Shown here: piece after piece, positions 31,630 to 48,858 of the stretch | Numbering within the stretch: the stretch's first letter is position 1 | How the letters are laid out: every line of letters starts with the position of its first letter | Assembly (NCBI GenBank): GCA_028281705.1 | Contig: JANQJH010000151.1 | Coordinates: 1 to 48,858 of the forward strand | Source: Verrucomicrobiales bacterium | GTDB lineage: Bacteria; Verrucomicrobiota; Verrucomicrobiia; Verrucomicrobiales; DEV007 | Reading direction: 5' to 3' | DNA: 48,858 bases | Translations under genes and position numbers: made by a program | The notes under the pieces: model-generated | Databases searched by the model: none | What the model saw: only the letters and a program-made list of their open reading frames with translations | What the model was told of the DNA's origin: nothing

Positions 31630-32056
31630 CCAGGTAGACAGATCGATCGTGCTTCCCTTGGCGAGACGTCCTCTTGGGCTTCACCGATTCCACTGAGTGA
31701 GGGGTCGGTTACTGCCAGATGAAGCCGGTGTATTGCGGTGAACACGAGGCGAGTGCTGAGAATGAACCGAGGAATCCGTTGGGTGTTCATCCGCGGTTCA
31801 GAATGGACTGTCGGTTGAGCGCGAATTCATGAACAATGATAGTGATGTGGATTCTCTAAGGATGAGCTGTGTCGAACCGTCAGGATTGGGAACACCTTGG
31901 TGATGAATGCTTCCCAATTTCTAGATGCGCCTTCCTTCATTGTTGCCTTATAATAACATTATCTTAATATGGAGTGTCGGGTAAACTGGTCCAAGAATAT
32001 CTTGACGATAATCTGACGTCGGTTAGTATGCTTGTCAGATTTTGGGAGGAACTTGG

Positions 32057-33811
32057 ATGGAAGGTGGAATCAATAAGTTTATTTGGGCAATTACGGTGTT
32101 CATGCTGGGCTATTATGTTCAGCTATCCCGATTCCAACGGCATCAAAGCAGTTTGGATGCGAGCCAGCCGGAAGTCTATCACTACTCTGCGCTTGATGAC
32201 GTAAGAACGCGTCAACTTGAGGGTTTGCTGGCCTCCGCCGGTTCATCTAATTCCTTGATGGAGCAAATGAACTGGCTCCGCACCGTCTCTCATCGAGATT
32301 TGCCCTCGGTGATGCAGCGGCTTAAAGAGGAAGGAGATACGCTGTTTCGAAATGCTCTTGAGATTCACTGGGCGGATACCGATCCCGAAGGCGCTGTCGA
32401 ATACGTCCGTCACCATTTGAGTGACAACGTTGAGTTTGCGGCCTTGGTGTTGTCCCGTTGGGCGAAGAAGGATCCCCAGGCTGCGATTGGCGGCGCTCGG
32501 AAAATTGGGCATACCGGTCTCCTGGAGGATTTCGATCGGAGTAGCCTGTGTCGCCACTCCCGGGAAATGATTCTGTCAGACTTGAGGTCCGCTCATTCGA
32601 AGCCCAGCTTTATTACGGGCATCTTTGAGACTCTGGCGCAAGAGGACGTGAGTTCAGCGATCGAAGAGGTGGAGGCGCTGTCTAGTCATGCCGCGAAGCG
32701 TCAGGCAATTCGGGGAATCGGCAAGGCGCTGGGCCGGGACGATCCGATTGCCGGAATCGAATGGGCCGAGAGTTTCGCTTCCTCGGAACTGAGGGGCGAT
32801 GCCACTCGCGTTGTGCTTTCGGAATGGATTGCTCAAGATCCCGCGGAAGCGGCCCGTGTTGTGGCGGGTCTTCCCAAGTCGGTGGAAGCGATTCCTCTCT
32901 ACGAGAGTTTGGCCAAAGCTTGGAGCGAACAGGAGCCGGGAGAGACGGTGGCGTGGGTATTGGAGAACACTTCAGGGCGGACTCAGACCGATGTCCTCAC
33001 GGCGGCCTTTGCCGATGCGAAGGCTCCCGGTGAAGTTGTCCAGCTGCTCTTGGATCATGAATTGACGCATACTCAAGGTCCTCTTTTCGAGCATTTGATG
33101 GCCGAGTGGGCCGCTGCGACCCCTGAGGACGCCCTGGGTTGGAGCCATGAATTGCCTGAGGAGGTGCGCGGATCTGCGCTCGCCGGGATCATGAGTGCGA
33201 TGGCGAAAACGGATCCTGAGGCGGCGACCGAATTCCTCGGGCAATTGCCGGAAGGAGATTCTTCGCTCGCGTCTGTGATTCGGGGTATCAGTGCTGGTAT
33301 GGGTTCGGCCGAACCCCTGTCCGGCCTCTCGATGATTGACCGTCACGAAGGGGCGCTCTCTCTTGAAGACTTTACGCGCATCTCGGCCCCGCTGGTTGAT
33401 TCCTTAGGGAATACGGCGCCCGATCTCGCCGCTGAATGGATGCAGCATTCGGGATTCCTTGAAGAAGTACGTTATACACACGTGTCACGGCAAACGGTCA
33501 AGAATCTGACGACGACCTGGGCTGGCGCGGACTTGGAGGCGGCTGAAAATTGGGTGGATGGCCTTTCGGGTACATCGAGAGAGGATGCCTTAGAATCCAT
33601 GGCGCGTTTTCAGCTTTCGATCGACCCTGCAGAAGCGTTTCGGTGGGCGGCAAAACTATCGGAGTTTCAGAAGCGCACGAACGTGATGAGTAATTTGTTC
33701 AGTGATCTTCCGAACACGCTAGACGTTCCCGAGTTGCTCGAAGAGTCACCATTGTCCGCGTCGGATAAGAAGCATCTCCAGCGGGATCTGCGAATGCACG
33801 GGCATCTCTGA
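32057..33811 (+). CDS. Membrane-anchored alpha-solenoid-like protein with DPxxAxxW repeats (cassette gene A)
   Basis: N-terminal TM segment; repeated DPEGAVEYV, DPQAAIGGA, DPIAGIEWAE, DPAEAARVVAGLP; GGAGGA upstream of ATG 32057; paralogous to 46941..48704. Confidence 0.85.
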   Translation: MEGGINKFIWAITVFMLGYYVQLSRFQRHQSSLDASQPEVYHYSALDDVRTRQLEGLLASAGSSNSLMEQMNWLRTVSHRDLPSVMQRLKEEGDTLFRNALEIHWADTDPEGAVEYVRHHLSDNVEFAALVLSRWAKKDPQAAIGGARKIGHTGLLEDFDRSSLCRHSREMILSDLRSAHSKPSFITGIFETLAQEDVSSAIEEVEALSSHAAKRQAIRGIGKALGRDDPIAGIEWAESFASSELRGDATRVVLSEWIAQDPAEAARVVAGLPKSVEAIPLYESLAKAWSEQEPGETVAWVLENTSGRTQTDVLTAAFADAKAPGEVVQLLLDHELTHTQGPLFEHLMAEWAAATPEDALGWSHELPEEVRGSALAGIMSAMAKTDPEAATEFLGQLPEGDSSLASVIRGISAGMGSAEPLSGLSMIDRHEGALSLEDFTRISAPLVDSLGNTAPDLAAEWMQHSGFLEEVRYTHVSRQTVKNLTTTWAGADLEAAENWVDGLSGTSREDALESMARFQLSIDPAEAFRWAAKLSEFQKRTNVMSNLFSDLPNTLDVPELLEESPLSASDKKHLQRDLRMHGHL

Positions 33812-33836
33812 GTCATTGCGCAAAGTTGATAGAATC

Positions 33837-35765
33837 ATGAAGCTAACGATCCAAAGAATTCGATTGGTTCTTCTCCTGGCATTGATGGGAGCATTTGGGT
33901 TTGGGGTCGGCCTCCTGCGCCATCCAATTAGAAAGGGCTCGGCGGTTGGAGATCCGGTTGAGCGCCCGCAGCTCTCCCTTCTTTCCTCATCGAGTCCCAA
34001 ACAAGGCGAGAGAGTTCCCGCGAAAGATATTGAAGACGCCTTGGGGCGAGGAACCGATTCAGAGAGGCTGTGGTGTTTGACGGAGTTGTTAGGACGAGTC
34101 GAACTGGGAGAGATCGGCGAGGTGGTGGATGCGTTGACGGCACTTGAAGACGCGACTTTTCAGGCGATCGCTCTACGGGCGGCACTCGCGCGGTGGGTCG
34201 AGCTGGATGGGGCCGGCTGTTTGCGTTATCTCGTTGAAAATCAAGGAGCGTGGACGGCGCAGCTCACCCAGACGTTCACCCAATCCCTCTTTGCACTGTG
34301 GGCCAAGAGTGATCTGGAGCGTTCGCGAGCCGCTGTCGAGGCCTTGAGTGGGGATGTGAAACGTGACGCACTGCTGGCGATCGCGGATACCATGTCTGCC
34401 AGTGCCCCCAAGGAATCACTCATGCTTGGATTGGAAGCGGAGTTGACTGAGGCCTCTCTTGAGCAAGCCGGGAAACTTTGGGATTTATTGGCGGCGAGCG
34501 AAGGGCTAACGGCAGCAGAGCTTCGCGGTACACTGAACGCCAGCGGGCTCACTGATGGGGTGATTGGGCGCATCTTCACAAGTATCGCAAACCAGAAGGT
34601 GGATGAGGATCCCGCCGGAGCCGTTCAGTGGGCCGCCGCGTTCGAGGGTCCTGCGATGAAGGCGTTTGCCTTGGAGCCCGTATTTGCTCGTATTTCGAAG
34701 GCATCGCCGGACCAGGCTGTGACTCTTCTGGAGACTCTTCCTAACTGGCAAGGGCATCTGTCCATCGTGCGTCAAGTAGCCCGCGAAGTTCTGAAAAAGG
34801 ATCCCCGCAAAGCCTCGGAATGGGTGAACTCTTCACAGGCGGGAATTCACCGCTTTCTGCTCCTCCGGGATCTTGCGAGTGATGGTATTCAGAAAGATCC
34901 TAGACATGTTGCCAAAGTCGCTGAGTGGGCAGCCTACACGTCAGATGTGAGATACATGCACTTCGCGCCTGTTGCCGGAAGATTTGCTGAAGTCGATCCG
35001 GAAGGCGCCCTTGCGTGGTTTCAGAATCTCGAGCCCGGTGGTCAGGTCGACTTCGCTGCTGCGGGGGCGGCCATCGGATCGAGATGGGCGGAAGAGGGTA
35101 TCGATCAAGCGTTGGCCAAGATCGAAGAGTTCCCAACGAGTCCAAAATTAAATGGCTTCACCACAGGGGTGGCGGAAGTACTTGGCCGGGATGCGCCGGA
35201 GAAGGGTTGGCAATGGGTGGCAACGCTGCCGGAAGATTTGGCTCCAGCGGCTCTCGAAGGCCTCGTGAGGGGACAAGTGCAGTCGGATCCGGAGGCGGCC
35301 GCTGCCCAAGTGGACCAGATTGAATCCCGGGCCCTTCAAGTCAAAGCGATCGAAGCGTTGACGGAGGCGTGGGCCCAGGATGATCCCGAATCCGCTGCGA
35401 TCTGGTTATTGGGGCAAGATGGCGCCGAAGACACCAAGAGGGCGACCGAGACACTCCTCACGGAGTGGTCTTACGTTGATCCCTTGGCTGCTTCCGCTTG
35501 GTTGCGGGAGCTTCCCGCAGGCGCCGCGAGGGATGGGGCTGTGGTCGCGATGACGAAGCGCGTGAAGGCTGCCGATCCCCAACTGTCATTGGAGTGGGCC
35601 GTTTCGATTAGTGATGCGAAAACTCGTGAAGCCCTCGTGCCCCGGCTGGCCTATCATTGGTACCGCCTCAATCCTACGGAAGCGCTGGATGGGGCCATGG
35701 GTATGGGTCTTACGGAGATCGAGCTTCAAAAAATGATGGACTTCATTGAGAAAGGATCGTGGTGA
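33837..35765 (+). CDS. Membrane-anchored alpha-solenoid-like protein with DPxxAxxW repeats (cassette gene B)
   Basis: N-terminal TM segment; DPAGAVQWAAAF, DPRKASEWVNS, DPEGALAWFQNL, DPESAAIWL, DPLAASAWLRELP; paralogous to 45030..46937. Confidence 0.85.
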   Translation: MKLTIQRIRLVLLLALMGAFGFGVGLLRHPIRKGSAVGDPVERPQLSLLSSSSPKQGERVPAKDIEDALGRGTDSERLWCLTELLGRVELGEIGEVVDALTALEDATFQAIALRAALARWVELDGAGCLRYLVENQGAWTAQLTQTFTQSLFALWAKSDLERSRAAVEALSGDVKRDALLAIADTMSASAPKESLMLGLEAELTEASLEQAGKLWDLLAASEGLTAAELRGTLNASGLTDGVIGRIFTSIANQKVDEDPAGAVQWAAAFEGPAMKAFALEPVFARISKASPDQAVTLLETLPNWQGHLSIVRQVAREVLKKDPRKASEWVNSSQAGIHRFLLLRDLASDGIQKDPRHVAKVAEWAAYTSDVRYMHFAPVAGRFAEVDPEGALAWFQNLEPGGQVDFAAAGAAIGSRWAEEGIDQALAKIEEFPTSPKLNGFTTGVAEVLGRDAPEKGWQWVATLPEDLAPAALEGLVRGQVQSDPEAAAAQVDQIESRALQVKAIEALTEAWAQDDPESAAIWLLGQDGAEDTKRATETLLTEWSYVDPLAASAWLRELPAGAARDGAVVAMTKRVKAADPQLSLEWAVSISDAKTREALVPRLAYHWYRLNPTEALDGAMGMGLTEIELQKMMDFIEKGSW

Positions 35766-35820: not shown

Positions 35821-35849
35821 TTGACAACCGTTAGTGTATGTGATATGAT
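35821..35849 (+). promoter_or_regulatory. Predicted sigma70-type promoter of the small secreted protein array
   Basis: TTGACA (35821-35826), 17-nt spacer, TATGAT (35844-35849), about 100 bp upstream of the first array gene. Confidence 0.6.
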
Positions 35850-35951: not shown

Positions 35952-36278
35952 ATGAAGATAAAAAGTGTTATCAAATCTATCGCTGCCGTCACCACATTGA
36001 CCTTCGTTTCTCTGATGGTGGCCAACGCCATGAAGTTCAACGATGGGAGCTATTCTTGCGGGAATGCCCCGTTTGAGACTGAATGGTGTGTCAATCCCTA
36101 TTATACAACGCTGGCGACTCCTGGTACGCATGCCCACATCATTCACGCCCTCGATATTTGGGGAAGTTGCAGCGCGGCCCATTCAGAGGCTGACCGGCGT
36201 TGGGTCTATAATGGGGACGCTTGGCTGAGCTGTGAGGATCTAAAGAAGGGACCGCATACCAATTGGTGGGACAATTGA
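35952..36278 (+). CDS. Small secreted/anchored Cys-His-Trp protein, array member 1
   Basis: Hydrophobic N-terminus; CSAAHSEADRRW and GPHTNWW. Confidence 0.75.
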   Translation: MKIKSVIKSIAAVTTLTFVSLMVANAMKFNDGSYSCGNAPFETEWCVNPYYTTLATPGTHAHIIHALDIWGSCSAAHSEADRRWVYNGDAWLSCEDLKKGPHTNWWDN

Positions 36279-36436
36279 TTTTCTGAAGTGGCTAGCAAGT
36301 GGATTACCATGTCGTTGGACGGGTGATTTGAATTGTTGAACGGACACACAGCGCACCTCTATCCGATTGACGATTCATAGCGCATTTCACATAGCGCATT
36401 TCAAAAACAAGTAACCAAGAAGACACGAACCATAAA

Positions 36437-36760
36437 ATGAAAACAAAAAACATTATTAAGACTGCCATCACCGCCATCACTTTCACGTTCGTCACCTTGA
36501 TGGTGGCAAGTGGACTGAAATTCAATTTTATCGTCGGTTCTGACAATTTTCTTTGTCCGTTTGATCCGTTTATATGCATTTGGGATTCCTATTATACGAT
36601 TGTGACACCAGGTACACATGTACACTTACATGAAGCTCTAGAAAACGGCGGGACTTGTGGCACTTTCCATTCAGAGGCAGACCGCGATTGGGCGTGGACG
36701 AGTAATTGGTTATGTCAGGATTTGGGGGAGGGTCCGTATACCCATTGGTGGAGCCAATGA
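36437..36760 (+). CDS. Small secreted/anchored Cys-His-Trp protein, array member 2
   Basis: THVHLHEALENGGTCGTFHSEADRDW...GPYTHWWSQ. Confidence 0.8.
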   Translation: MKTKNIIKTAITAITFTFVTLMVASGLKFNFIVGSDNFLCPFDPFICIWDSYYTIVTPGTHVHLHEALENGGTCGTFHSEADRDWAWTSNWLCQDLGEGPYTHWWSQ

Positions 36761-36891
36761 GACTGCTCGGTTCTCTTGACTGATATACTGATCTTGAGTG
36801 TGATCGAGTACCGGGATCCCTACTGCCTATCCGATTGGCGATTCATAGCGCATTTCAAAAACAAGTAACCAAGAAGACACGAACCATAAAA

Positions 36892-37215
36892 ATGAAAACA
36901 AAAAACATTATTAAGACTGCCATCACCGCCATCACTTTCACGTTCGTCACCTTGATGGTGGCAAGTGGACTGAGATTCAATTTCATCGTCGGTTCTAACA
37001 ATTTTCTTTGTCCGTTTGATCCGTTTATATGCGTTTGGGATGCCTATTATACGATTGTGACACCAGGTACACACGTCCACTTACATGAAGCTCTAGAAAA
37101 CGGTGGGACTTGTGGCACTTTCCATTCAGAGGCAGACCGCGATTGGACGTGGACGAGTAATGGGTCATGTGAGGATTTGGGGGAGGGTCCGTATACCCAT
37201 TGGTGGAGCCAATGA
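36892..37215 (+). CDS. Small secreted/anchored Cys-His-Trp protein, array member 3
   Basis: Near-identical to member 2; start at MKTKN rather than the 36835 extension. Confidence 0.8.
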   Translation: MKTKNIIKTAITAITFTFVTLMVASGLRFNFIVGSNNFLCPFDPFICVWDAYYTIVTPGTHVHLHEALENGGTCGTFHSEADRDWTWTSNGSCEDLGEGPYTHWWSQ

Positions 37216-37351
37216 TACCCTCAGTTCTCTGGACTGATGCGCTGCTCTTGGGTGTGGGTGTGGTCGAGTGCCGCGTTCCTACTGCCTATCTGATTGACGA
37301 TTCATAGCGCATTTCAAAAAACAAGTAACCAAGAAGACACGAACCATAAAA

Positions 37352-37678
37352 ATGAGGACAAAAAACATTATTAGAACCGTCATCACGGCCATCTCCTTCA
37401 CGTTCGTCACCTTGATGGTCGCCAGTGGGCTGAAATTCAATTTTCCCCTTGGGTCTGGCACATTTGATTGTCCATGGGATCCATCCTTATGCTTCTTCTA
37501 TTCCTATTATACGATAGTGACGCCGGGTACACACGTACACTTGCATGAAGCTCTAGAAAACGATGGCGGGACTTGTGGTACTTTTCATGCAGAGGCAGAC
37601 CGTGACTGGACGTGGACGAGTACTTTGTCGTGTCAGGATCTAGGGGAAGGTCCGTATACCCATTGGTGGAGCCAATGA
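37352..37678 (+). CDS. Small secreted/anchored Cys-His-Trp protein, array member 4
   Basis: THVHLHEALENDGGTCGTFHAEADRDW...GPYTHWWSQ. Confidence 0.8.
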   Translation: MRTKNIIRTVITAISFTFVTLMVASGLKFNFPLGSGTFDCPWDPSLCFFYSYYTIVTPGTHVHLHEALENDGGTCGTFHAEADRDWTWTSTLSCQDLGEGPYTHWWSQ

Positions 37679-37797
37679 GGAGTGAGTTTGCCAGTCCCAT
37701 AGATATGAAAGTCTGTTCCTGATCCGGATCAATTCGATCTGTCAGTGGCACTTGGATGTACTGACGAAACCAAACCAAAACCATAACAACTAAAACG

Positions 37798-38109
37798 ATG
37801 AAAATAGGAGGTCATATTAAGATACTGGTAAATACCGCGATCTGTGTCTTTGCGGCAATGATGGTCGCAGAGGGAATTCGAGTGGAAATTAGCGGTAGCA
37901 CGTGCGGCAACCTTGGTCCTACTGCTACGGGGACTCGGGTTACTCTTGTCAGTGCCGGAGATACAGCCTGGGTGCATGATGCGCTCAACGAAATCGGCGA
38001 TTGTAGTGAAAACCACTCGGAATCTAATCGAACATGGGATCCGGTAACCAGAGCGGGTACTTTTGAATTCTTCATTGAAGGTCCGTTCACCGCCTATTGG
38101 ACCGACTAA
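37798..38109 (+). CDS. Small secreted/anchored Cys-His-Trp protein, array member 5 (diverged)
   Basis: AWVHDALNEIGDCSENHSESNRTW...GPFTAYW. Confidence 0.75.
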   Translation: MKIGGHIKILVNTAICVFAAMMVAEGIRVEISGSTCGNLGPTATGTRVTLVSAGDTAWVHDALNEIGDCSENHSESNRTWDPVTRAGTFEFFIEGPFTAYWTD

Positions 38110-38132
38110 CAAGGTCAGATTGAAGTAGCTCT

Positions 38133-38441
38133 ATGAAAAGGAATCAATACTTCAAGACGCTGACGAGCACCATTGTCTGTGTGTTTTCAGCGATGATGGT
38201 TGCGAAAGGACTCAAAGTTGAAGTCAGCAATAGTTCCTGCGGAAACTTAGGGGGCGTCGTCGTCTCGAACACAGTAACCTTCGTGAGTGCGGGGCACACA
38301 GCCTACGTTCATGATACACTCTCCGACGATGGAATTCACTGCACTCTTGATCACCAGGAGGCGAACCGAGATTGGAACCCAAATCCTGGGGCGGCTCTTT
38401 CCCAACCAATCATTGAAGGTCCATTCACAAGCTATTTGTAA
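38133..38441 (+). CDS. Small secreted/anchored Cys-His-Trp protein, array member 6 (diverged)
   Basis: AYVHDTLSDDGIHCTLDHQEANRDW...GPFTSYL. Confidence 0.75.
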   Translation: MKRNQYFKTLTSTIVCVFSAMMVAKGLKVEVSNSSCGNLGGVVVSNTVTFVSAGHTAYVHDTLSDDGIHCTLDHQEANRDWNPNPGAALSQPIIEGPFTSYL

Positions 38442-38524
38442 AGTAAGAATTCCGATCGCAGAGGGAGGGTTGTGGAGGGCGTGAAGCCCGCTCTTCATCT
38501 TTCTGCGCAGGCAACACCGATCTT

Positions 38525-38562
38525 CCCGGCATCGCTCAGTGGAGACGCTGAGCGATGCCGGG
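38525..38562 (+). terminator. Strong hairpin after the small-protein array (terminator or attenuator candidate)
   Basis: CCCGGCATCGCTCAG-tggagacg-CTGAGCGATGCCGGG, 15-bp perfect stem; no immediate long T-tract. Confidence 0.5.
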
Positions 38563-38606
38563 GTTTGGAGTCGGTCCCCTTTTGCTCTTAGATTTTCGTC
38601 ACTGCC

Positions 38607-39413
38607 ATGAAACTTTCTATCGTCATTCCCGTATACAACGAAGGTGTCTTCATTGAGCGAACCGTCGAGCTGGCTGTTGCCCAACCAGTAGACGGTGTTG
38701 CTGAAAGAGAGATCATTATCGTCGATGACGCCTCGACGGATGGCACGCCGCAGATCGCCAAAAATCTAGCGGAAAAGCATTTTCCCGTGGTGCGTGTTCT
38801 GAGACACGATCGAAATTGTGGCAAAGGCGCTGCCCTGAGGACAGGGTTCAAGGAAGCCGTCGGTGATATCATCTTGGTTCAGGATGGAGATTTTGAATAT
38901 CATCCTCGCGACTATGGGCGACTTCTACGTCCGATTGTGAACGGACAAGCCGATGTGGTTTACGGATCTAGGTTTATGGGGTCTTCGGAGAAACGGGTCA
39001 TCTTCTTTTGGCACATGATGGGGAACCGCCTGCTGACGCTGTGGTCCAACATGCTGACAAACCTGAACCTAACCGATATGGAGACTGGCTATAAGGTGTT
39101 CCGGAAGGAAGTGGTCGATGCCTTGGAGATCAAGGAAGAGCGCTTCGGTGTTGAGCCTGAGATCACCGCCAAGGTCGCTAGCTTGGGTGCCCGTATTTAC
39201 GAGGTTGGCATTGGCTATCACGGGCGCACTTACGATGAAGGAAAAAAGATTGGGTGGAAGGACGGCGTTCGTGCTCTCTGGGTCATCTCAAAGTATTTTT
39301 TTAAATGCCGAATTCTTCGAAGCGATCCGTTGAAGATCAACGGCGGGAAATCGACCGCTGCCGATTCCGGCATTTTTTGTGCGTCCACCATGGAAACCCG
39401 AGATGCGCGCTAG
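38607..39413 (+). CDS. Family 2 glycosyltransferase (dolichyl-phosphate mannosyltransferase-like)
   Basis: MKLSIVIPVYNEG, EIIIVDDASTDGT, CGKGAALRTGFKEAVGDIILVQDGDFEYHP, VVYGSRFM. Confidence 0.92.
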   Translation: MKLSIVIPVYNEGVFIERTVELAVAQPVDGVAEREIIIVDDASTDGTPQIAKNLAEKHFPVVRVLRHDRNCGKGAALRTGFKEAVGDIILVQDGDFEYHPRDYGRLLRPIVNGQADVVYGSRFMGSSEKRVIFFWHMMGNRLLTLWSNMLTNLNLTDMETGYKVFRKEVVDALEIKEERFGVEPEITAKVASLGARIYEVGIGYHGRTYDEGKKIGWKDGVRALWVISKYFFKCRILRSDPLKINGGKSTAADSGIFCASTMETRDAR

Positions 39414-39790: not shown

Positions 39791-40840
39791 TCATTGGCCT
39801 TTGGGTTCAAGAGTTTCCAGTAACACTGCCAAGGGCGTCTCGGCGGAGATTTCAAACGGAGCGTCATCTAGAGGACGCCGAACGCGGACTTGCCCAAAGC
39901 GATTGGGGGAGATGTAAACACTTCCCTCTTTACTTGAGAATTTCACTTTACCGATCGAATTGCGAGGTAAACGAACGTCTATTTCGTCTCCGATGTCCAC
40001 ACCCGCTTGCTTCCAATGATAGAGCACTTCTGGAAATTGCAAAACTCTTCCTGTGATCGCACGAGGCGAGGGTGATCCAACGCCTACCCCCTGATTCTCG
40101 TGGCACCGTGTACATGACGTGGTGGCAATGGGCGCCTGGTTGATGATGGAAATGGCTGAAGCCTTGGCGGCTTCGGTGGATTTTGAGTGGGTTGACAAGC
40201 GAATAGAGGCACCGTTCCAGCGGGCTTGGACGATTCCCAGAGGCGATACCTCCGCCGCATACCAGATCTCGAGAAATGGACGCAGTCTCTGATCTGAAGA
40301 TTTCACAAAGACAAAAGCGTGAGTCGTTTCAATCTCTTTGGAATCGATCATCATTGGCTCTTTTCCTTGGTCCTCCACAATAACCTCTCTCCGCTTCTGG
40401 CGATTCCGAAACGGATACGTCATCAGACCAGGTGCCTCGAGAATCGCCATCTCGTGTGACGTCATTGCGGGATCGTCTTCAGCCAATAGGCGCCAGAGCT
40501 TGAGCGGATTCGGACCGACCTTTTCACCGTTCGTCGCGGTGAGCCAGGTCCTCCCAGCGTCATCGGGTAGGTTTTTGTGAATTCCATATTCGACGTTGAT
40601 TGCTGTTCGGCTTCCGGCTTCAAGTGAATATTGAGACACGTCACCATCGTTCCATTGGACACCAAGCGCTTTCGGCGAGAGATAATTTAATCGATCGAGC
40701 AGTGTCGTCCTCTCCGCGAATCGTTTGAATGAGCGAGCTTCTCGGTTTCGACGGTCAAATTCTTGAAATGCGAGAAACGCGATGCCGATGCCGATCACGA
40801 CCGTCAAGCTCATCGACAGTGCATCCGGGATTGCTTTCAT
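39791..40840 (-). CDS. Membrane-anchored protein with one CxxCH heme-binding motif
   Basis: N-terminal TM; TSCTRCHENQGVG; ATG at 40840 overlaps the upstream stop (ATGA). Confidence 0.75.
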   Translation of the reverse strand: MKAIPDALSMSLTVVIGIGIAFLAFQEFDRRNREARSFKRFAERTTLLDRLNYLSPKALGVQWNDGDVSQYSLEAGSRTAINVEYGIHKNLPDDAGRTWLTATNGEKVGPNPLKLWRLLAEDDPAMTSHEMAILEAPGLMTYPFRNRQKRREVIVEDQGKEPMMIDSKEIETTHAFVFVKSSDQRLRPFLEIWYAAEVSPLGIVQARWNGASIRLSTHSKSTEAAKASAISIINQAPIATTSCTRCHENQGVGVGSPSPRAITGRVLQFPEVLYHWKQAGVDIGDEIDVRLPRNSIGKVKFSSKEGSVYISPNRFGQVRVRRPLDDAPFEISAETPLAVLLETLEPKGQ

Positions 40841-43047
40841 TCTTTGGAGGCTTGGTTGAAGGTCACAAATCCGTTTTCGCGGATGGTACACAATCCCTTG
40901 AGCTGATTGCGGTATTTGCCGATTTTCAAAATCATCTCAATCCGATAAGTTCCATATCCAGGTGACTCGACCGCAAAAGGAACAGAGGCACGTTCGCCGA
41001 TGAGGACACTGTTTTTGTAGGTGTAAGAGCTGGTCACGTCTGGATCAGATTGAAGTTCAGTCGAAGCTTGATACCAATTGATTGTCAATTCGACGGGCTG
41101 ATCCCAAGGCGTCGAAAGGATCATCTGATCGGCAGCGGACAACCCAAGGATGAGGGAAAGCGATTCAGGTTGATCTTCATTGGTGAATATATCCGCCTTG
41201 GTTAGAGACAGCTGAGCAAGAGCACTTCTTTCTGGCTTCCTTGCTTGATAGAGTATCGAGTCGCCTTCAGAGAGGGTCTCTGCGTAGCTGCGCCCAATGG
41301 CTTCCTTCCAGATCGGCGCACGTTTTTCGCTGACCTCATTCCAATGGACCATGATGTAACTGGGGGAAAAAGCATTGATCGCCTGCTCAAGGCGTTCCGG
41401 GGAGTCTTCCCATTGGCAGGCGGCCTCTAGTTGGGCGTAGGCACGAGGATGAAAACCGGAATAGCCGTTGATCAGAGGCTGCCAGTGCTGGACACTTGCG
41501 AGCATGTAGCTCGCATCGCGTGCGGGACGCGCCCGCGATTGGAAATTGGGCAACTCCAATACGGCGCCCCTCTCCTGTTCTGCGAGGAATGCATACAACT
41601 TGGAGTTCGGCGCGAGGTCGTTGCGGATATCATAGAGGCGCACGTTGCTGGGCCAGAGTTCAATGAGGGCGAGAAGCCCGATGGCTCCAAAGCAGAGAAC
41701 GCGCCCGCTTCTCCAAGGGACTCGATTTAGAAGGCACTTGATTGCATGCCCTGCCGTGAGAGCGAGGAACATGGCCAGAAAGATGCTAAACCGGTAAGGT
41801 GAGCGAATGGATGAATACCCGGGAAAGAACTCGTAAAGCAGGTTGTAGGGCGACAGCCAGTAGACGATGCTATAGACGCCTAACCCAACGGGACTCGTGG
41901 GCGCCAGCGCGAGGCCGAGCGAAAGGATGAACGCCAAGAGTGCCATCCAGATGAAATAACGTTCCACGCCTGAGCCAAACGCGAGTGCGGGTGAGTCAAT
42001 TCGCTGATGCTTCAGGCCGCGCTTCAACAAAATCGCCCCAAGGATGCCAAAGGTGAGGAGGATTCCTCCAACAAAACAGCTAGTTTCTGCCGAGCCTCCG
42101 CTCCACTGCAGGAAATCGTGATAAAACCAATTGTTGGATGGTGGTCTTAGGTAGGTGCCCAACATGGCGGACAAGGTTTCAACGACGGCTTTGGGGCGTT
42201 CAAAGGAAAGGGACTGCTTTGGTGCCAGCATCCCTTGTGCGAGCGGCCACATCAGTAATAAGACGCACGCTGATACGGCGCCCCCGCGAATGAGGGCTTG
42301 CTTGGCGTTCCACCATCGTTTCCAACAGAAGATCCCAAAAACCATCGCAAAGACGGTCAAGAAGATGCCGTAGTAGGCGCAGCTATTCCAACACATGAGG
42401 TAGCAAAGGCCCGTCATGATCGCGTCTCTCCAGAGAAATCTGTCCATGAATCGCAGCATGAAGAGAAGGGTGAGCGGCGGAAAGGGGAAGGCATAGAGTT
42501 GAAGCACCCCGAGTTCCTTGAACATGTAGGGATTGAAGAGAAAAAGAAGTCCGGCGAGAAAGGCCGCCGCGTGAGTTTCCATCCTGGAAGACCGGCCCCC
42601 TTGTGAGAGCAAATGCTCCGCCAAGAGATAGACCGCCCAGCCGGAGCTGAAAAAGAAGAGCAAGAACACCAGATTGTAGAGTGTCACGAGTTCGACCCCT
42701 ACGAGGGCGAGCGGCAAGGTAATCAGGGAGGTCAAGAATTGCGGCTCTGAATAGGCTAGGGCATAACGGTGGGGATAGAAATTGTTCGAATCCCAGTAGG
42801 CGGTTTGCAGAGGTGCCCGCATCCAGTGGTGATTCCAGGCCAGGGTCCACAAATTCAGTTGACTCACCATGACGATGGACTGCTCCCCTGGCGTCACGTG
42901 GGAGTTGAGATTCTTTGCTAGTGGCCACGTGACGGCGAGCGCTAGAATGAGGTAGATGAGCGCAGCCACGGCGTGATATCGCCAGTGCATCTTTGCTGGA
43001 AGGTCAGTCGCGCTTTGCGAAGAATCAGACGGGCTGCTATCTTGCAT
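40837..43047 (-). CDS. Polytopic membrane protein, GT-C/YfhO-like putative glycosyltransferase
   Basis: Many TM segments followed by C-terminal soluble domain; N-terminal TWPLAKNLNSHV...NLWTLAWNHHWM...NNFYPHRYALAYSEPQ. Confidence 0.75.
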   Translation of the reverse strand: MQDSSPSDSSQSATDLPAKMHWRYHAVAALIYLILALAVTWPLAKNLNSHVTPGEQSIVMVSQLNLWTLAWNHHWMRAPLQTAYWDSNNFYPHRYALAYSEPQFLTSLITLPLALVGVELVTLYNLVFLLFFFSSGWAVYLLAEHLLSQGGRSSRMETHAAAFLAGLLFLFNPYMFKELGVLQLYAFPFPPLTLLFMLRFMDRFLWRDAIMTGLCYLMCWNSCAYYGIFLTVFAMVFGIFCWKRWWNAKQALIRGGAVSACVLLLMWPLAQGMLAPKQSLSFERPKAVVETLSAMLGTYLRPPSNNWFYHDFLQWSGGSAETSCFVGGILLTFGILGAILLKRGLKHQRIDSPALAFGSGVERYFIWMALLAFILSLGLALAPTSPVGLGVYSIVYWLSPYNLLYEFFPGYSSIRSPYRFSIFLAMFLALTAGHAIKCLLNRVPWRSGRVLCFGAIGLLALIELWPSNVRLYDIRNDLAPNSKLYAFLAEQERGAVLELPNFQSRARPARDASYMLASVQHWQPLINGYSGFHPRAYAQLEAACQWEDSPERLEQAINAFSPSYIMVHWNEVSEKRAPIWKEAIGRSYAETLSEGDSILYQARKPERSALAQLSLTKADIFTNEDQPESLSLILGLSAADQMILSTPWDQPVELTINWYQASTELQSDPDVTSSYTYKNSVLIGERASVPFAVESPGYGTYRIEMILKIGKYRNQLKGLCTIRENGFVTFNQASKE

Positions 43048-44013: not shown

Positions 44014-44310
44014 TTAGGGGGCAGGCTCCATCCAGAAATTATCGGACGGGCCATCGCTGCCGTTGCCTCCTGCTACCCATTTAGAGTTAGAGAACTCATG
44101 TGTTGTGTCAACCATGCAAAAAGTCTGTACTTCAGCAAACGCAATGTGGAAGCCAGCGTAGGCGGTCTGATGAAAGGTGCCGCTCTGTTCGGAGCAAACG
44201 TCAAAGCTCTCTATTTCGAAAGTCGCCTCAGTTACTGGCCGTAAAGCCATCAATACCAGGAATGATACGGAGCACGACGTTAATACACATTTTAGTCTAT
44301 CTATTTTCAT
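44014..44310 (-). CDS. Diverged seventh member of the small secreted Cys-His-Trp family
   Basis: Hydrophobic N-terminus; CMVDTTHEFSNSKW and GPSDNFW align with the array consensus. Confidence 0.55.
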   Translation of the reverse strand: MKIDRLKCVLTSCSVSFLVLMALRPVTEATFEIESFDVCSEQSGTFHQTAYAGFHIAFAEVQTFCMVDTTHEFSNSKWVAGGNGSDGPSDNFWMEPAP

Positions 44311-44373: not shown

Positions 44374-44962
44374 CTAAATCTCAGAGAGCTGATTGCTGTG
44401 GTGACCTGACTCGCGCAAAGAAACTTCTCGACCTTCCTGGGCATCCACCGTTGAATTACGAGTCCGGCGATTTCTGGTCTCTAACCAATACTTGGCTGTC
44501 GTCCAGATCGCACTTGCGCCATCCTTCCATGTGATCTTCTTTCCCTGCTGGTACGTTCGTCCATTGTACCCGATTCCAACTTCATAAATCCGAAGTCGTA
44601 GCTGAGCAATCTTAGCGGTTAGTTCTGGTTCAATTCCGAACCTGTCCTCCTCAATGGCGATCTGATCCAGGACCTCCTTCCGAAAAACCTTATAGCCGGT
44701 TTCCATGTCGGTCAGATTCAGATTTGTTAGCATATTGGACCAAAAGGTGAGGATTCTTGCGATGATTGACAATGCGGATTTTTTTCTTGTGAGAGGTTGT
44801 TAATGTTTCTAATGCTGATGCAGTGCCGTCCGTCGATCCATCGTTAATGACGATAATCTCGCTTTCATCAATGCCATCTACGCGCTGAGAAATAACCTGC
44901 CTCAGCGCTTCGCCAACGAAGTGCATCTCATTGTAAACAGGAACCACTATTGAAAGTTTCAT
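44374..44962 (-). pseudogene. Family 2 glycosyltransferase pseudogene with internal deletion and frame disruption
   Basis: MKLSIVVPVYNE...SEIIVINDGSTDGT...NHRKN joined out of frame to LTFWSNMLTNLNLTDMETGYKVFRKEV...; the middle containing DxD is missing versus 38607..39413. Confidence 0.85.
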
Positions 44963-45029: not shown

Positions 45030-46937
45030 TTAATGAATAGGACCCCCATTGGTTTCTATTAGCATAATAAGCTTTTCTTGTTCGATTTCAGTAAGGCCTA
45101 GATTAAGAGAAAAATCCAAAGCCTCGTTCTGATTCGTCCGAGCCCACAAATAGGCCAACCGAGGAACAAGAGTTTCTCTCATCTTGGAATCATTGATGGA
45201 AACGGCCCACTCCATCGCTGTTTGAGGGTCAATGCCGATGAAGTCTTTTGCGAGTGTAACTGCCCCGCTATCTCGCGCTGTGCCCTCAGGAAGGTCGCGC
45301 AACCATTCTGAAGCGGCCATGGGATCAACGTAGCTCCATTGCTTCACGATTTCATTCACTACCTTATTCATGTTCTCGATGCCTGGCTGTTCGCCAAACC
45401 AATCGGCAGCAGATGCCGGATCCGCTTCAGACCAGGCTGATGATAAGGTATGCAGTGCTTGATCTTTCAGAGGGCTTTCTTCCACCGATAAGATGGCCTT
45501 GGCCGCCTCGTGGGGAGTATCTCTCAACTGACCACGCACCAAACCAGAAATGGCCGCGGATTGGAGATCTTCATCAAGAGAATCTATCCAATCCCACCCG
45601 CGGGCAGCATTGGATTCTCCCAGTACCTCGGCAATTCCCCCCGCAAATCCCCGTTGCTTTTCCGCTGTTCGTAGATATTCGAGCTGAGCGATGGCTTCGT
45701 TTATGTTTCGTTCGGCCCACCGTTGCCCAATGGCTGAACCCACCGCTTTGACGTCAGCATGAGCTCGCGGATGCATTCGATTGAACCACTCTAAGGCCCC
45801 GTCTGGGTCATAGTCGGCAAATCGCCCTGCAATAGGTGCGAACTCTATGAATGGCATGTCGGTCGTCAAGGCTGCCCATTCGGAGATTTTGGCCGCATAG
45901 ACAGGATCCAATTGCGCCCCTTTGGTTGCCAGATCCCTCAAGAGCTCGAATCGACCAAGTCCTGCATGAGACTTATTGGCCCATTCCGTGGCTCCCTGTG
46001 GATTCGTCTTGAGCATTGCCATTGCGATTTCTCGGACTAAATTGCTATCGCCTTGCCAATTGGGAATCTGGTTTAGGCGTGCAGTAGCCTCGTCGGGCGA
46101 CCTTTCAGCCAGTGCCCCAAATACCGCTGCTAATGCAGAGGAGCGCAATGAGGGCTGTACAAATAACTGAGCCCAGTTGATTGCTTCATCAGGATCTTCC
46201 TCAATCTTTAATCGGGCCAATTGCCCGACGATTTCATTGACGACATCATTCGGAACACTCCTTGATACGGCAGAGCTGAGCAATTTGGCTGCAGAATTCT
46301 CATCGAGAGTGGCTATCTGGTCCCAAAGCTTCGCCACATTTTCTTCCAAGATCGAAGCATTTAGGGAGAGGATCAGAGAAGCTCTTGGATTGGTAGAATC
46401 CACAGATTGGCTCATCGCCGCGAGAGCCAATCTGCGAACACTGGGGTTCAATGCGGTCGTGGCTGTGCGCGCTGCAGCGAAGTCAATTTCCGCCCAAGTC
46501 GCAAAAAAAATACTAAGTAATTCATCATGTTTTGGCTTACCGACTTCAAGGCTTTCTACGAATCGGAAACCGCCATCAACGTCTATCTCAATCCATTTCG
46601 CGAACAGGATCTGAGTTATAGCAAGTCTGAGCGCTGAGTTCTGCAACGCCATGATCTCCTTTGGCAGTGACGCTAGACCGTCTGATGAGGTTCGATCTAT
46701 AAGATCGCAAATGCCCAAGAGCTGTTGAGAGACGGGTCGTCGACGCAAAGCGTCTTCAATAGAAGTGGCGGGAGGCCATTCCCTGAAATCTCGCAGAATG
46801 CTCTGTGTGTTGACGGCGGATTCTTCGGCAGTAAGGTGCCTCGTGAAGCTGCTCGTTATCGCTAGCCGATGGCGTGTTACAATGCCTGCTAGAAGCCCAG
46901 CGGATAAGACGATTAGGAGGGTTCGCGTGGAATTCAT
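45030..46937 (-). CDS. Alpha-solenoid-like DPxxAxxW repeat protein, paralog of cassette gene B
   Basis: AVSINDSKMRETLVPRLAYLWARTNQNEALDFSLNLGLTEIEQEKL matches the C-terminus of 33837..35765; N-terminal TM. Confidence 0.85.
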   Translation of the reverse strand: MNSTRTLLIVLSAGLLAGIVTRHRLAITSSFTRHLTAEESAVNTQSILRDFREWPPATSIEDALRRRPVSQQLLGICDLIDRTSSDGLASLPKEIMALQNSALRLAITQILFAKWIEIDVDGGFRFVESLEVGKPKHDELLSIFFATWAEIDFAAARTATTALNPSVRRLALAAMSQSVDSTNPRASLILSLNASILEENVAKLWDQIATLDENSAAKLLSSAVSRSVPNDVVNEIVGQLARLKIEEDPDEAINWAQLFVQPSLRSSALAAVFGALAERSPDEATARLNQIPNWQGDSNLVREIAMAMLKTNPQGATEWANKSHAGLGRFELLRDLATKGAQLDPVYAAKISEWAALTTDMPFIEFAPIAGRFADYDPDGALEWFNRMHPRAHADVKAVGSAIGQRWAERNINEAIAQLEYLRTAEKQRGFAGGIAEVLGESNAARGWDWIDSLDEDLQSAAISGLVRGQLRDTPHEAAKAILSVEESPLKDQALHTLSSAWSEADPASAADWFGEQPGIENMNKVVNEIVKQWSYVDPMAASEWLRDLPEGTARDSGAVTLAKDFIGIDPQTAMEWAVSINDSKMRETLVPRLAYLWARTNQNEALDFSLNLGLTEIEQEKLIMLIETNGGPIH

Positions 46938-46940
46938 TTG

Positions 46941-48704
46941 TTACCGAGGCAGGTGGCCATGCATTCTAAGATCTTTTTGCAGATGCGTTTTGTCTGTATC
47001 TGATAGAGACGAAGCGGCCAACAACTTTGGCACATCCGCCGTCTTCGGAAGATCTCCGAATAGATTGCTTACCAGATTGGTGCGCTGCCTGAAATCCGAA
47101 ATAAGGTTTGCCCAGTTAAAAGCCTGCACGGGATCAATGGACACCAGATATCTTGATAGTGCGTCCGCTCCTTGTTCTCGTGCAAAACCGGGTGGCAGGT
47201 TTTCCACCCATGTCTCCGCTGCGGCCCGGTCGACGCCAACCCAGTTATTCGTGATTTGATTAATAGCCATCCGAGTGCGGTGTGACTCTGCTATGGGTTC
47301 CAAGATTCCCAATTCATCAAGCAGCGTCGAAGCCAATTCTGGATTGTCCTTCGAAGCCTCGGATAGCAAACGGGTAGCGAGTCCATTGTACTCCTGATCG
47401 CTCATGCCTTCGCGATACTCATTCAAGAGCCCAAGTCCCGCTACAAGATCTCTCTCCATGAGTCCTTCCGCAACACCCCCAACATGGGCAGTCGCAATGG
47501 CATCGTTGTCAGAGAGATCGGAGAGATATGCAAGCGCCACTTCGGGATTGTCAATTGCAACTCCGCTTAGCGCTGCACCAACCGCAACGTCCCGCTCGTG
47601 CCCCGCCAGATTTTCGCTCCAAGTAAGCGCCATTTGAGGACTTTCTCCTGCCCAACGCGTCACGAGACTATCGAACAATTTAGGATGGAGTTCAGAGAGC
47701 TCATGTGCGACCAGTAACTGCGCTGTAGCTCCGGGATCCGGAATCTCACTGAATGCTGACATCAACACCTCTGATTGAGTTTCTCCCGATGTGTGTTGTC
47801 TGATCCAGGCGATGGAATCTTCTGGGGACACTTTGGCCCATTCCGACGCAAGCTTCTCATAAACCAACGTCGTCTCGATAGACTGAGGTAGAGATAACAC
47901 GTGCCGCGCCGCAGTTTCCGGTTCGTCCGCAATCCACTGCATTAGCACTGCCCGTCGCGCTTCGTCCCGTAGGCTTGCTCGCTCCAGACCATCGGCCCAC
48001 GCCAGTGCAGACTTGGGATCGGAGGCGGCCCATTTTTTGCCGACACCTCGAACGGCCTGCCGGCGAGCATCACGGTCCCGCAACTGTAAAGCCTGAGCCG
48101 CTGCACTCTCAACGTTCTGAAGTGCCATCGCCTCGAATATCGTAGCAATGAATGTTGGCTTTCTTTCCGATTTCAGGAGATCCGCCTTAACCTTTCGACG
48201 GTCATGTCGGGCAAGAAAGCTGCGATTTGCATCACTCAGCAATCCGGTGTGGCCAATTTTTTTTGCGCTTGCGACTGCCTTTTGCGGATCGCGAAAGGCG
48301 AGCTTCGTCAACACCAACTCACCAAAATCCTCGTTGCTGTCTAAATGGTGACGGATATAGTCTATAGCACCGTCCGGATCACGCTCGGCCCAATACAGCC
48401 GCAATAAATGGAGGAATCGGTCGTCACCAGTCGCCTCAATACGATTATAAACTGCAGCGAGTTCATTGTTAGAAATAGAACTCATCCATTGAATCTGCCG
48501 CGTTAGGCGGGCGAACACACTTAATTCGTCTGCCTCAAGTGCTTCGTCAAGGCTGCTTTCTCGCGACTCCGTAAGCGGATCGAATTGATACTGTAACGGC
48601 TGCGTGGTCTGTATTTCGGGTCGATCCCAGATTAGATCACTTAATTGATAGCCGCCTACGAAGCTCGCTAGAGCAAGCGCGGCAAAATGGAGGGAATCGT
48701 TCAT
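46941..48704 (-). CDS. Alpha-solenoid-like DPxxAxxW repeat protein, paralog of cassette gene A
   Basis: KKIGHTGLL, QAVRGVGK, FNWANLISDFRQRTNLVSNLFGDLPKTADVPKLL...HLQKDLRMHGHL match 32057..33811; Met at 48704 preferred over 48776, which lies in the tandem repeat. Confidence 0.85.
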   Translation of the reverse strand: MNDSLHFAALALASFVGGYQLSDLIWDRPEIQTTQPLQYQFDPLTESRESSLDEALEADELSVFARLTRQIQWMSSISNNELAAVYNRIEATGDDRFLHLLRLYWAERDPDGAIDYIRHHLDSNEDFGELVLTKLAFRDPQKAVASAKKIGHTGLLSDANRSFLARHDRRKVKADLLKSERKPTFIATIFEAMALQNVESAAAQALQLRDRDARRQAVRGVGKKWAASDPKSALAWADGLERASLRDEARRAVLMQWIADEPETAARHVLSLPQSIETTLVYEKLASEWAKVSPEDSIAWIRQHTSGETQSEVLMSAFSEIPDPGATAQLLVAHELSELHPKLFDSLVTRWAGESPQMALTWSENLAGHERDVAVGAALSGVAIDNPEVALAYLSDLSDNDAIATAHVGGVAEGLMERDLVAGLGLLNEYREGMSDQEYNGLATRLLSEASKDNPELASTLLDELGILEPIAESHRTRMAINQITNNWVGVDRAAAETWVENLPPGFAREQGADALSRYLVSIDPVQAFNWANLISDFRQRTNLVSNLFGDLPKTADVPKLLAASSLSDTDKTHLQKDLRMHGHLPR

Positions 48705-48764
48705 CGCGTTCTTTACATCTCCTGCCTTTTTTAAGGACGCCGCTACAAAGTAGTTATGCATTGG

Positions 48765-48858
48765 CATCCAATTCAAATGGGCACATCCAATTCAAATGGG
48801 CACATCCAATTCAAATGGGCACATCCAATTCAAATGGGCACATCCAATTCAAATGGGC
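48765..48858. repeat. 19-bp tandem repeat (catccaattcaaatgggca), about 5 copies, running off the window
   Basis: Units at 48765, 48784, 48803, 48822, 48841, essentially identical. Confidence 0.95.

What the first reader, a model, noticed from the sequence alone, without database searches (positions are those of the whole stretch)
35952..38441. Six-gene tandem array of a small secreted protein family with a C-x3-H-x-E-[AS]-[DN]-R-x-W signature
All six proteins (102-108 aa) have a positively charged start, a hydrophobic N-terminus ending near MVAxG[LI][KR], then [VI]H..AL or similar, the Cys-His-Glu-Arg-Trp signature and a C-terminal GP[YFH]T..[WY] motif. Two cysteines are shared by all; members 1-4 have an additional pair, consistent with one core and one optional disulfide. 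I recognise no known family.
Basis: partly seen in the sequence, partly recalled or inferred. Interest (0 to 1): 0.72.

Follow-up and report, generated by a model that had tools for sequence, protein, structure and literature searches.

The report
Orphan array of small secreted proteins
A verrucomicrobial bacterium carries six side-by-side genes (and probably a seventh, more distant one nearby) for small, probably exported, disulfide-bonded proteins that are kept by natural selection, have one fast-changing segment and were found in no other genome searched, so the family is real and new but its job is not known.

Summary
Six same-strand ORFs of 102-108 aa share an export-type N-terminus, two invariant mature cysteines, C-x3-H-x-E-[AS]-[DN]-R-x-W and a GP[YFH]T-x-[WY] ending. 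m3 finds m5 and m6 at E = 1e-7 and 2e-6 in its own 8.3-Mb genome. dN/dS is 0.15-0.27 for most pairs with unsaturated dS, so they are under coding constraint. No Pfam, NCBIfam, PHROGs, PADLOC or PDB match; no relative in GTDB and IMG/VR pattern scans, phages, plasmids or several hundred related genomes. New here: (1) a probable distant seventh member, m7 (44014-44310, -); (2) array and m7 lie in two inverted paralogous blocks [repeat protein A - repeat protein B - GT2], and a third A-B block elsewhere also has a small exported-type protein and a GT2; (3) a near-consensus promoter and a strong hairpin flank the array; (4) cysteines 2 and 4 are lost together; (5) residues 31-52 change much faster than the core, while the leaders of m2-m4 hardly change. 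Best reading: Sec-exported, disulfide-bonded binding or effector proteins with a constant core and a variable face. Function is inference; both AlphaFold models were useless. The family is new; its kind (genome-restricted small secreted protein arrays) is not.

The parts
35821..35849 (+). Promoter-like site TTGACA-N17-TATGAT, 11 of 12, with TG before the second hexamer, about 100 bp before m1
   Evidence: the region as a whole has no more sites than shuffles; this is the best match
35952..36278 (+). m1, 108 aa, four mature cysteines
36437..36760 (+). m2, 107 aa, four mature cysteines
36829..36891 (+). A-rich, apparently unstructured 5' leader before m3, repeated before m2 (36361-36436) and m4 (37288-37351); almost unchanged between copies although about 40% of synonymous sites differ
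36892..37215 (+). m3, 107 aa, four mature cysteines; recent duplicate of m2 (93% identical)
37352..37678 (+). m4, 108 aa, four mature cysteines
37798..38109 (+). m5, 103 aa, two mature cysteines
38133..38441 (+). m6, 102 aa, two mature cysteines
38516..38575 (+). Very stable hairpin between m6 and the glycosyltransferase; probable transcription end, although no full T-run follows directly
   Evidence: -51 kcal/mol, z -5.9
44014..44310 (-). m7, 98 aa, probable distant seventh member with two mature cysteines
32042..33811 (+). Repeat protein A, block 1; 39% identical to A of block 2
33816..35765 (+). Repeat protein B, block 1; 41% identical to B of block 2; one hydrophobic N-terminal segment
38607..39413 (+). 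Glycosyltransferase family 2, block 1
46941..48776 (-). Repeat protein A, block 2
45030..46937 (-). Repeat protein B, block 2
44374..44961 (-). Broken glycosyltransferase copy, block 2: internal deletion and frame change
40837..43047 (-). 736-aa protein with about eight membrane spans, GT-C-like by topology only

Best explanation
m1-m6 (and probably m7) are precursors of small Sec-exported proteins. The first ~26 residues are cut off after A-x-[GA]; the mature chain of about 76-82 residues folds around one invariant disulfide (C36-C73 in m1 numbering) and, in m1-m4, a second one (C46-C92). A constant core (H, E, R, W, GP-T) holds the fold, and a segment around residues 31-52 is free to vary and forms the face that meets a partner outside the cytoplasm. 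The copies arose by tandem duplication together with their leaders and are transcribed as one unit from the promoter near 35821 to the hairpin near 38560. The most likely role is that of secreted binding or effector proteins acting at the cell surface or on neighbours; the linked GT2 may glycosylate them or the surface they bind. Shown: family, coding constraint, cysteine pattern, variable segment, array structure, paralogous blocks. Inferred: export, disulfides, transcription unit and every step of function.
For: Homology and constraint. Signal-peptide-like N-termini in all seven. Cysteines 2 and 4 lost together. Between m3 and m4, 17.5 of 52.5 nonsynonymous sites changed in codons 31-52 against about 10 of 199 elsewhere (Fisher p 5e-7), with no significant contrast at synonymous sites. 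Promoter-like site and strong hairpin at the two ends. Two paralogous A-B-GT blocks in the window and a third A-B block on contig C236 that also holds a 115-aa exported-type protein and a GT2.
Against: No structure: both AlphaFold models had mean pLDDT below 40. The small protein of C236 is not detectably related to this family, so the shared layout may be coincidence; A-B-type pairs occur at many loci of this genome without small exported genes. In the variable segment dN (0.44) stays below dS (1.0), so relaxed constraint is as good a reading as diversifying selection. No secretion or expression data.
Confidence: 0.42

Rival explanations
1. A bacteriocin-like array: each small secreted protein inhibits competing bacteria, and the variable face follows variation of the target.
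For: Small, exported-type, cysteine-paired, tandemly duplicated, genome-restricted, one variable segment.
Against: No immunity-type gene paired with the members (gaps of 23-158 bp hold none), no dedicated exporter next to them, no match to bacteriocin families in Pfam or NCBIfam, lactococcin 972 included.
Confidence: 0.2
2. Structural or surface-coat proteins (fibre, sheath or matrix subunits) glycosylated by the GT2 and a membrane GT-C-like enzyme.
For: A GT2 follows the array directly; the A-B blocks carry a GT2 (intact or broken) and lie near a multi-span membrane protein.
Against: A strong hairpin separates array and GT2; the two membrane proteins are not related to each other by BLAST and match no Pfam glycosyltransferase.
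Confidence: 0.2
3. Periplasmic ligands or partners of the A and B repeat proteins, acting inside the envelope, for example in sensing.
For: The array lies directly behind A and B; A-B-like proteins elsewhere in this genome appear fused to ECF-sigma-like N-termini (recognised from memory).
Against: Most A-B pairs have no small exported gene beside them, and the array has its own promoter-like site.
Confidence: 0.13
4. Selfish or decaying duplicated DNA without function.
For: Recent tandem copies; the GT2 copy in block 2 is broken.
Against: dN/dS 0.15-0.27, conserved leaders, all six reading frames intact.
Confidence: 0.05

Closest known systems
Lactococcin 972 family bacteriocins (Pfam PF09683)
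   Same: Exported precursors of similar length with a short mature domain and conserved His/Trp/Tyr positions (from memory, a lead only).
   Different: No hit to PF09683 at E <= 1 for any member; invariant cysteines and the C-x3-H-x-E core are not, to my knowledge, its hallmark; no immunity or ABC-transporter genes beside these genes.
Genome-restricted (orphan) arrays of small secreted disulfide proteins, best known from fungal effectors (general knowledge)
   Same: Signal peptide, few cysteines, tandem duplication, a fast-changing segment, no relatives.
   Different: Bacterial; linked to glycosyltransferase and repeat-protein genes; strong overall purifying selection.
Small exported-type 115-aa protein of block C236 (L041:6846-7193)
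   Same: Position behind an A-B pair and next to a GT2; exported type.
   Different: No detectable sequence relationship (552 of 2000 shuffles score as well).

Membership tests
Lactococcin 972 (PF09683) | Scores against the Pfam model | tested here: not met
   No hit for m1-m6 at E <= 1
Lactococcin 972 (PF09683) | Fold of the mature domain | tested here: inconclusive
   AlphaFold models unusable, mean pLDDT 38 and 36.5
Any family in Pfam-A, NCBIfam, PHROGs, PADLOC or with a solved structure | Profile match at a meaningful E-value | tested here: not met
Sec-exported small proteins | Positive n-region, hydrophobic core, A-x-[AG] cleavage site | tested here: met
   by rule of thumb; SignalP not available
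Small secreted disulfide proteins | Paired cysteines in the mature chain | tested here: met
   2 or 4 mature cysteines in every member, lost in pairs; oxidation state not testable
This family (m1-m6): membership of m7 | Detectable homology | tested here: inconclusive
   Profile of m1-m6 does not rank m7 above shuffles; summed global alignment to m1, m3, m5, m6 beats all 2000 shuffles; only further ORF of 1756 passing the export-plus-motif filter

The most novel reading that the evidence does not exclude
A recurrent verrucomicrobial cassette type: two paralogous exported helical-repeat proteins, fast-evolving genome-specific small secreted proteins and a GT2 (plus a membrane GT-C-like protein), in which the repeat proteins and glycosyltransferases handle, display or modify interchangeable small proteins; an unrecognised surface-diversification system.
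Probability: 0.15. Interest if true: 0.72.

Novelty: new member of a known kind. Interest (0 to 1): 0.42.

Why it matters
It documents a protein family seen so far in one genome only, yet under clear selection, with a built-in contrast between a frozen core and a changing segment. If the A-B-small protein-GT2 layout proves recurrent, it would point to an undescribed way in which Verrucomicrobiota vary their surface or secreted proteins.

Tried and rejected
Pfam, NCBIfam, PHROGs, PADLOC, PDB sequence search: nothing. Weak profile hits in G056, G441, G371, G605, G323, G473, G556, G482 and G051 read as chance: partial, inside long unrelated ORFs, interrupted by stops, or in the wrong frame of a gene such as the DnaE-like one of G051. 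AlphaFold on the precursor and on the mature form: unusable, so no fold search was made. C236 small protein as a family member: rejected; no relatives of it either in 58 genomes. Leader as a structured RNA: no convincing consensus fold (-2.1 kcal/mol). Rfam hit BTnc231 at 38432-38559, 30 bits against a gathering score of 80: taken as chance, driven by the hairpin. Paper searches found nothing on such a family.

Full report
OBSERVATION. The window is the whole of contig C365 of an 8.3-Mb assembly (678 contigs, 91% complete). Its prolyl-tRNA synthetase is nearest (65-70% identity) to records named Chthoniobacter, Verrucomicrobia and Akkermansiaceae, so the source is a verrucomicrobial genome; I could not name it further. 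Eighteen columns are invariant. A single member searched against the whole genome finds exactly the other five, down to E = 2e-6. Five of the six pairs among m1-m4 have dN/dS of 0.15-0.27; the sixth, m2/m3, differs by only 12 changes. The genes have a GC content of 45-51% against 57% for the window.

ANATOMY OF THE PROTEINS. All have two or three net positive charges in the first ten residues, a hydrophobic stretch, and ANA/ASG/AEG/AKG just before [LIM][KR][FV][NE], the usual look of a Sec signal peptide; SignalP was not available. C36 and C73 (m1 numbering) are in all six. C46 and C92 are in m1-m4 and both missing in m5 and m6, which is what a second disulfide would give. Comparing m3 with m4, codons 31-52 (just after the signal peptide) carry 17.5 changes on 52.5 nonsynonymous sites, the rest about 10 on 199 (Fisher p 5e-7); synonymous change does not differ significantly. 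dN does not exceed dS there, so this is either relaxed constraint or moderate diversification.

ARRAY AND LEADERS. m2, m3 and m4 are tandem units of 455-460 bp. The roughly 64 bases before the start codon are almost identical between them (2 substitutions in 64 for m3/m4) while about 40% of synonymous sites differ; binomial probability about 6e-12. Either the leader is selected or it is kept alike by gene conversion confined to it. It occurs nowhere else in the genome and has no convincing fold. Leaders of m1, m5 and m7 are likewise rich in A and poor in G. A TTGACA-N17-TATGAT site lies 100 bp before m1 and an exceptionally stable hairpin (-51 kcal/mol, z -5.9) lies between m6 and the glycosyltransferase. 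The array is thus probably a transcription unit of its own (inference).

SURROUNDINGS. The window holds two inverted, paralogous blocks: A (32042) - B (33816) - m1..m6 - GT2 (38607) on +, and A (46941-48776) - B (45030-46937) - broken GT2 (44374-44961) - m7 on -. The A pair is 39% and the B pair 41% identical, the GT2 remnant 68% over 100 residues, with an internal deletion and frame change. m7 (98 aa) has an export-type N-terminus, two mature cysteines and an H-E-x-x-N-x-x-W and G-P stretch in the family order. The profile alone does not raise it above shuffles, but global alignment to four members beats all 2000 shuffles, and it was the only further ORF of 1756 to pass a crude export-plus-motif filter. 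I treat it as a probable distant member.

A THIRD BLOCK. On contig C236 (L041) full-length paralogues of A (30-31%) and B (29-30%) are followed by a 534-aa multi-span protein, a 115-aa exported-type protein and a GT2. The small protein is not related to m1-m7 by sequence and has no relative in 58 genomes. A-B-like pairs at many other loci of the same genome lack small exported genes. So the layout was seen three times at most and the cassette idea is a lead only.

DISTRIBUTION. Profile searches over 290 genomes of the order, 390 of the phylum, 76 of the family (three others of the same genus) and 385 of the class found no credible relative (overlapping sets; the larger scans scored only the best candidates per genome). 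Pattern-led scans of GTDB representatives and IMG/VR found none, tblastn against phages and plasmids none. The large metagenome collection could not be searched. As far as seen here the family is restricted to one genome.

FUNCTION. There is no enzyme family, no immunity gene, no exporter and no usable structure. What the sequence does show (export-type N-terminus, paired cysteines, frozen core, changing segment, duplication, narrow distribution) is the usual picture of secreted proteins that meet a partner outside the cell. I put that reading first (0.42), with bacteriocin-like, surface-coat and envelope-ligand readings behind it. None is demonstrated.

VERDICT. Observation confirmed and extended; interpretation as an unknown secreted family supported; new family, known kind.

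Noticed in passing
window 32042-35765 and 45030-48776: The A and B repeat proteins belong to a family with 67 matches in this genome and 41 and 55 in two related genomes; several copies appear fused to ECF-sigma-like N-termini.
   Followed up: partly
window 44374-44961 (-): Glycosyltransferase pseudogene with internal deletion and frame change.
   Followed up: yes
L041:5473-12556: Third A-B block with a multi-span membrane protein, an orphan 115-aa exported-type protein and a GT2.
   Followed up: partly
window 36361-36436, 36829-36891, 37288-37351: 5' leaders far more conserved than the synonymous sites of the genes they precede; no structure found.
   Followed up: partly
window 39791-40891 (-): 366-aa protein with one membrane span and a single CxxCH haem-binding-type motif, next to the 736-aa membrane protein.
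   Followed up: no
window 38607-39413: The GT2 is much closer (54-57%) to copies in other families of the order than to any found in its own genus (about 30%), suggesting horizontal transfer or loss.
   Followed up: no
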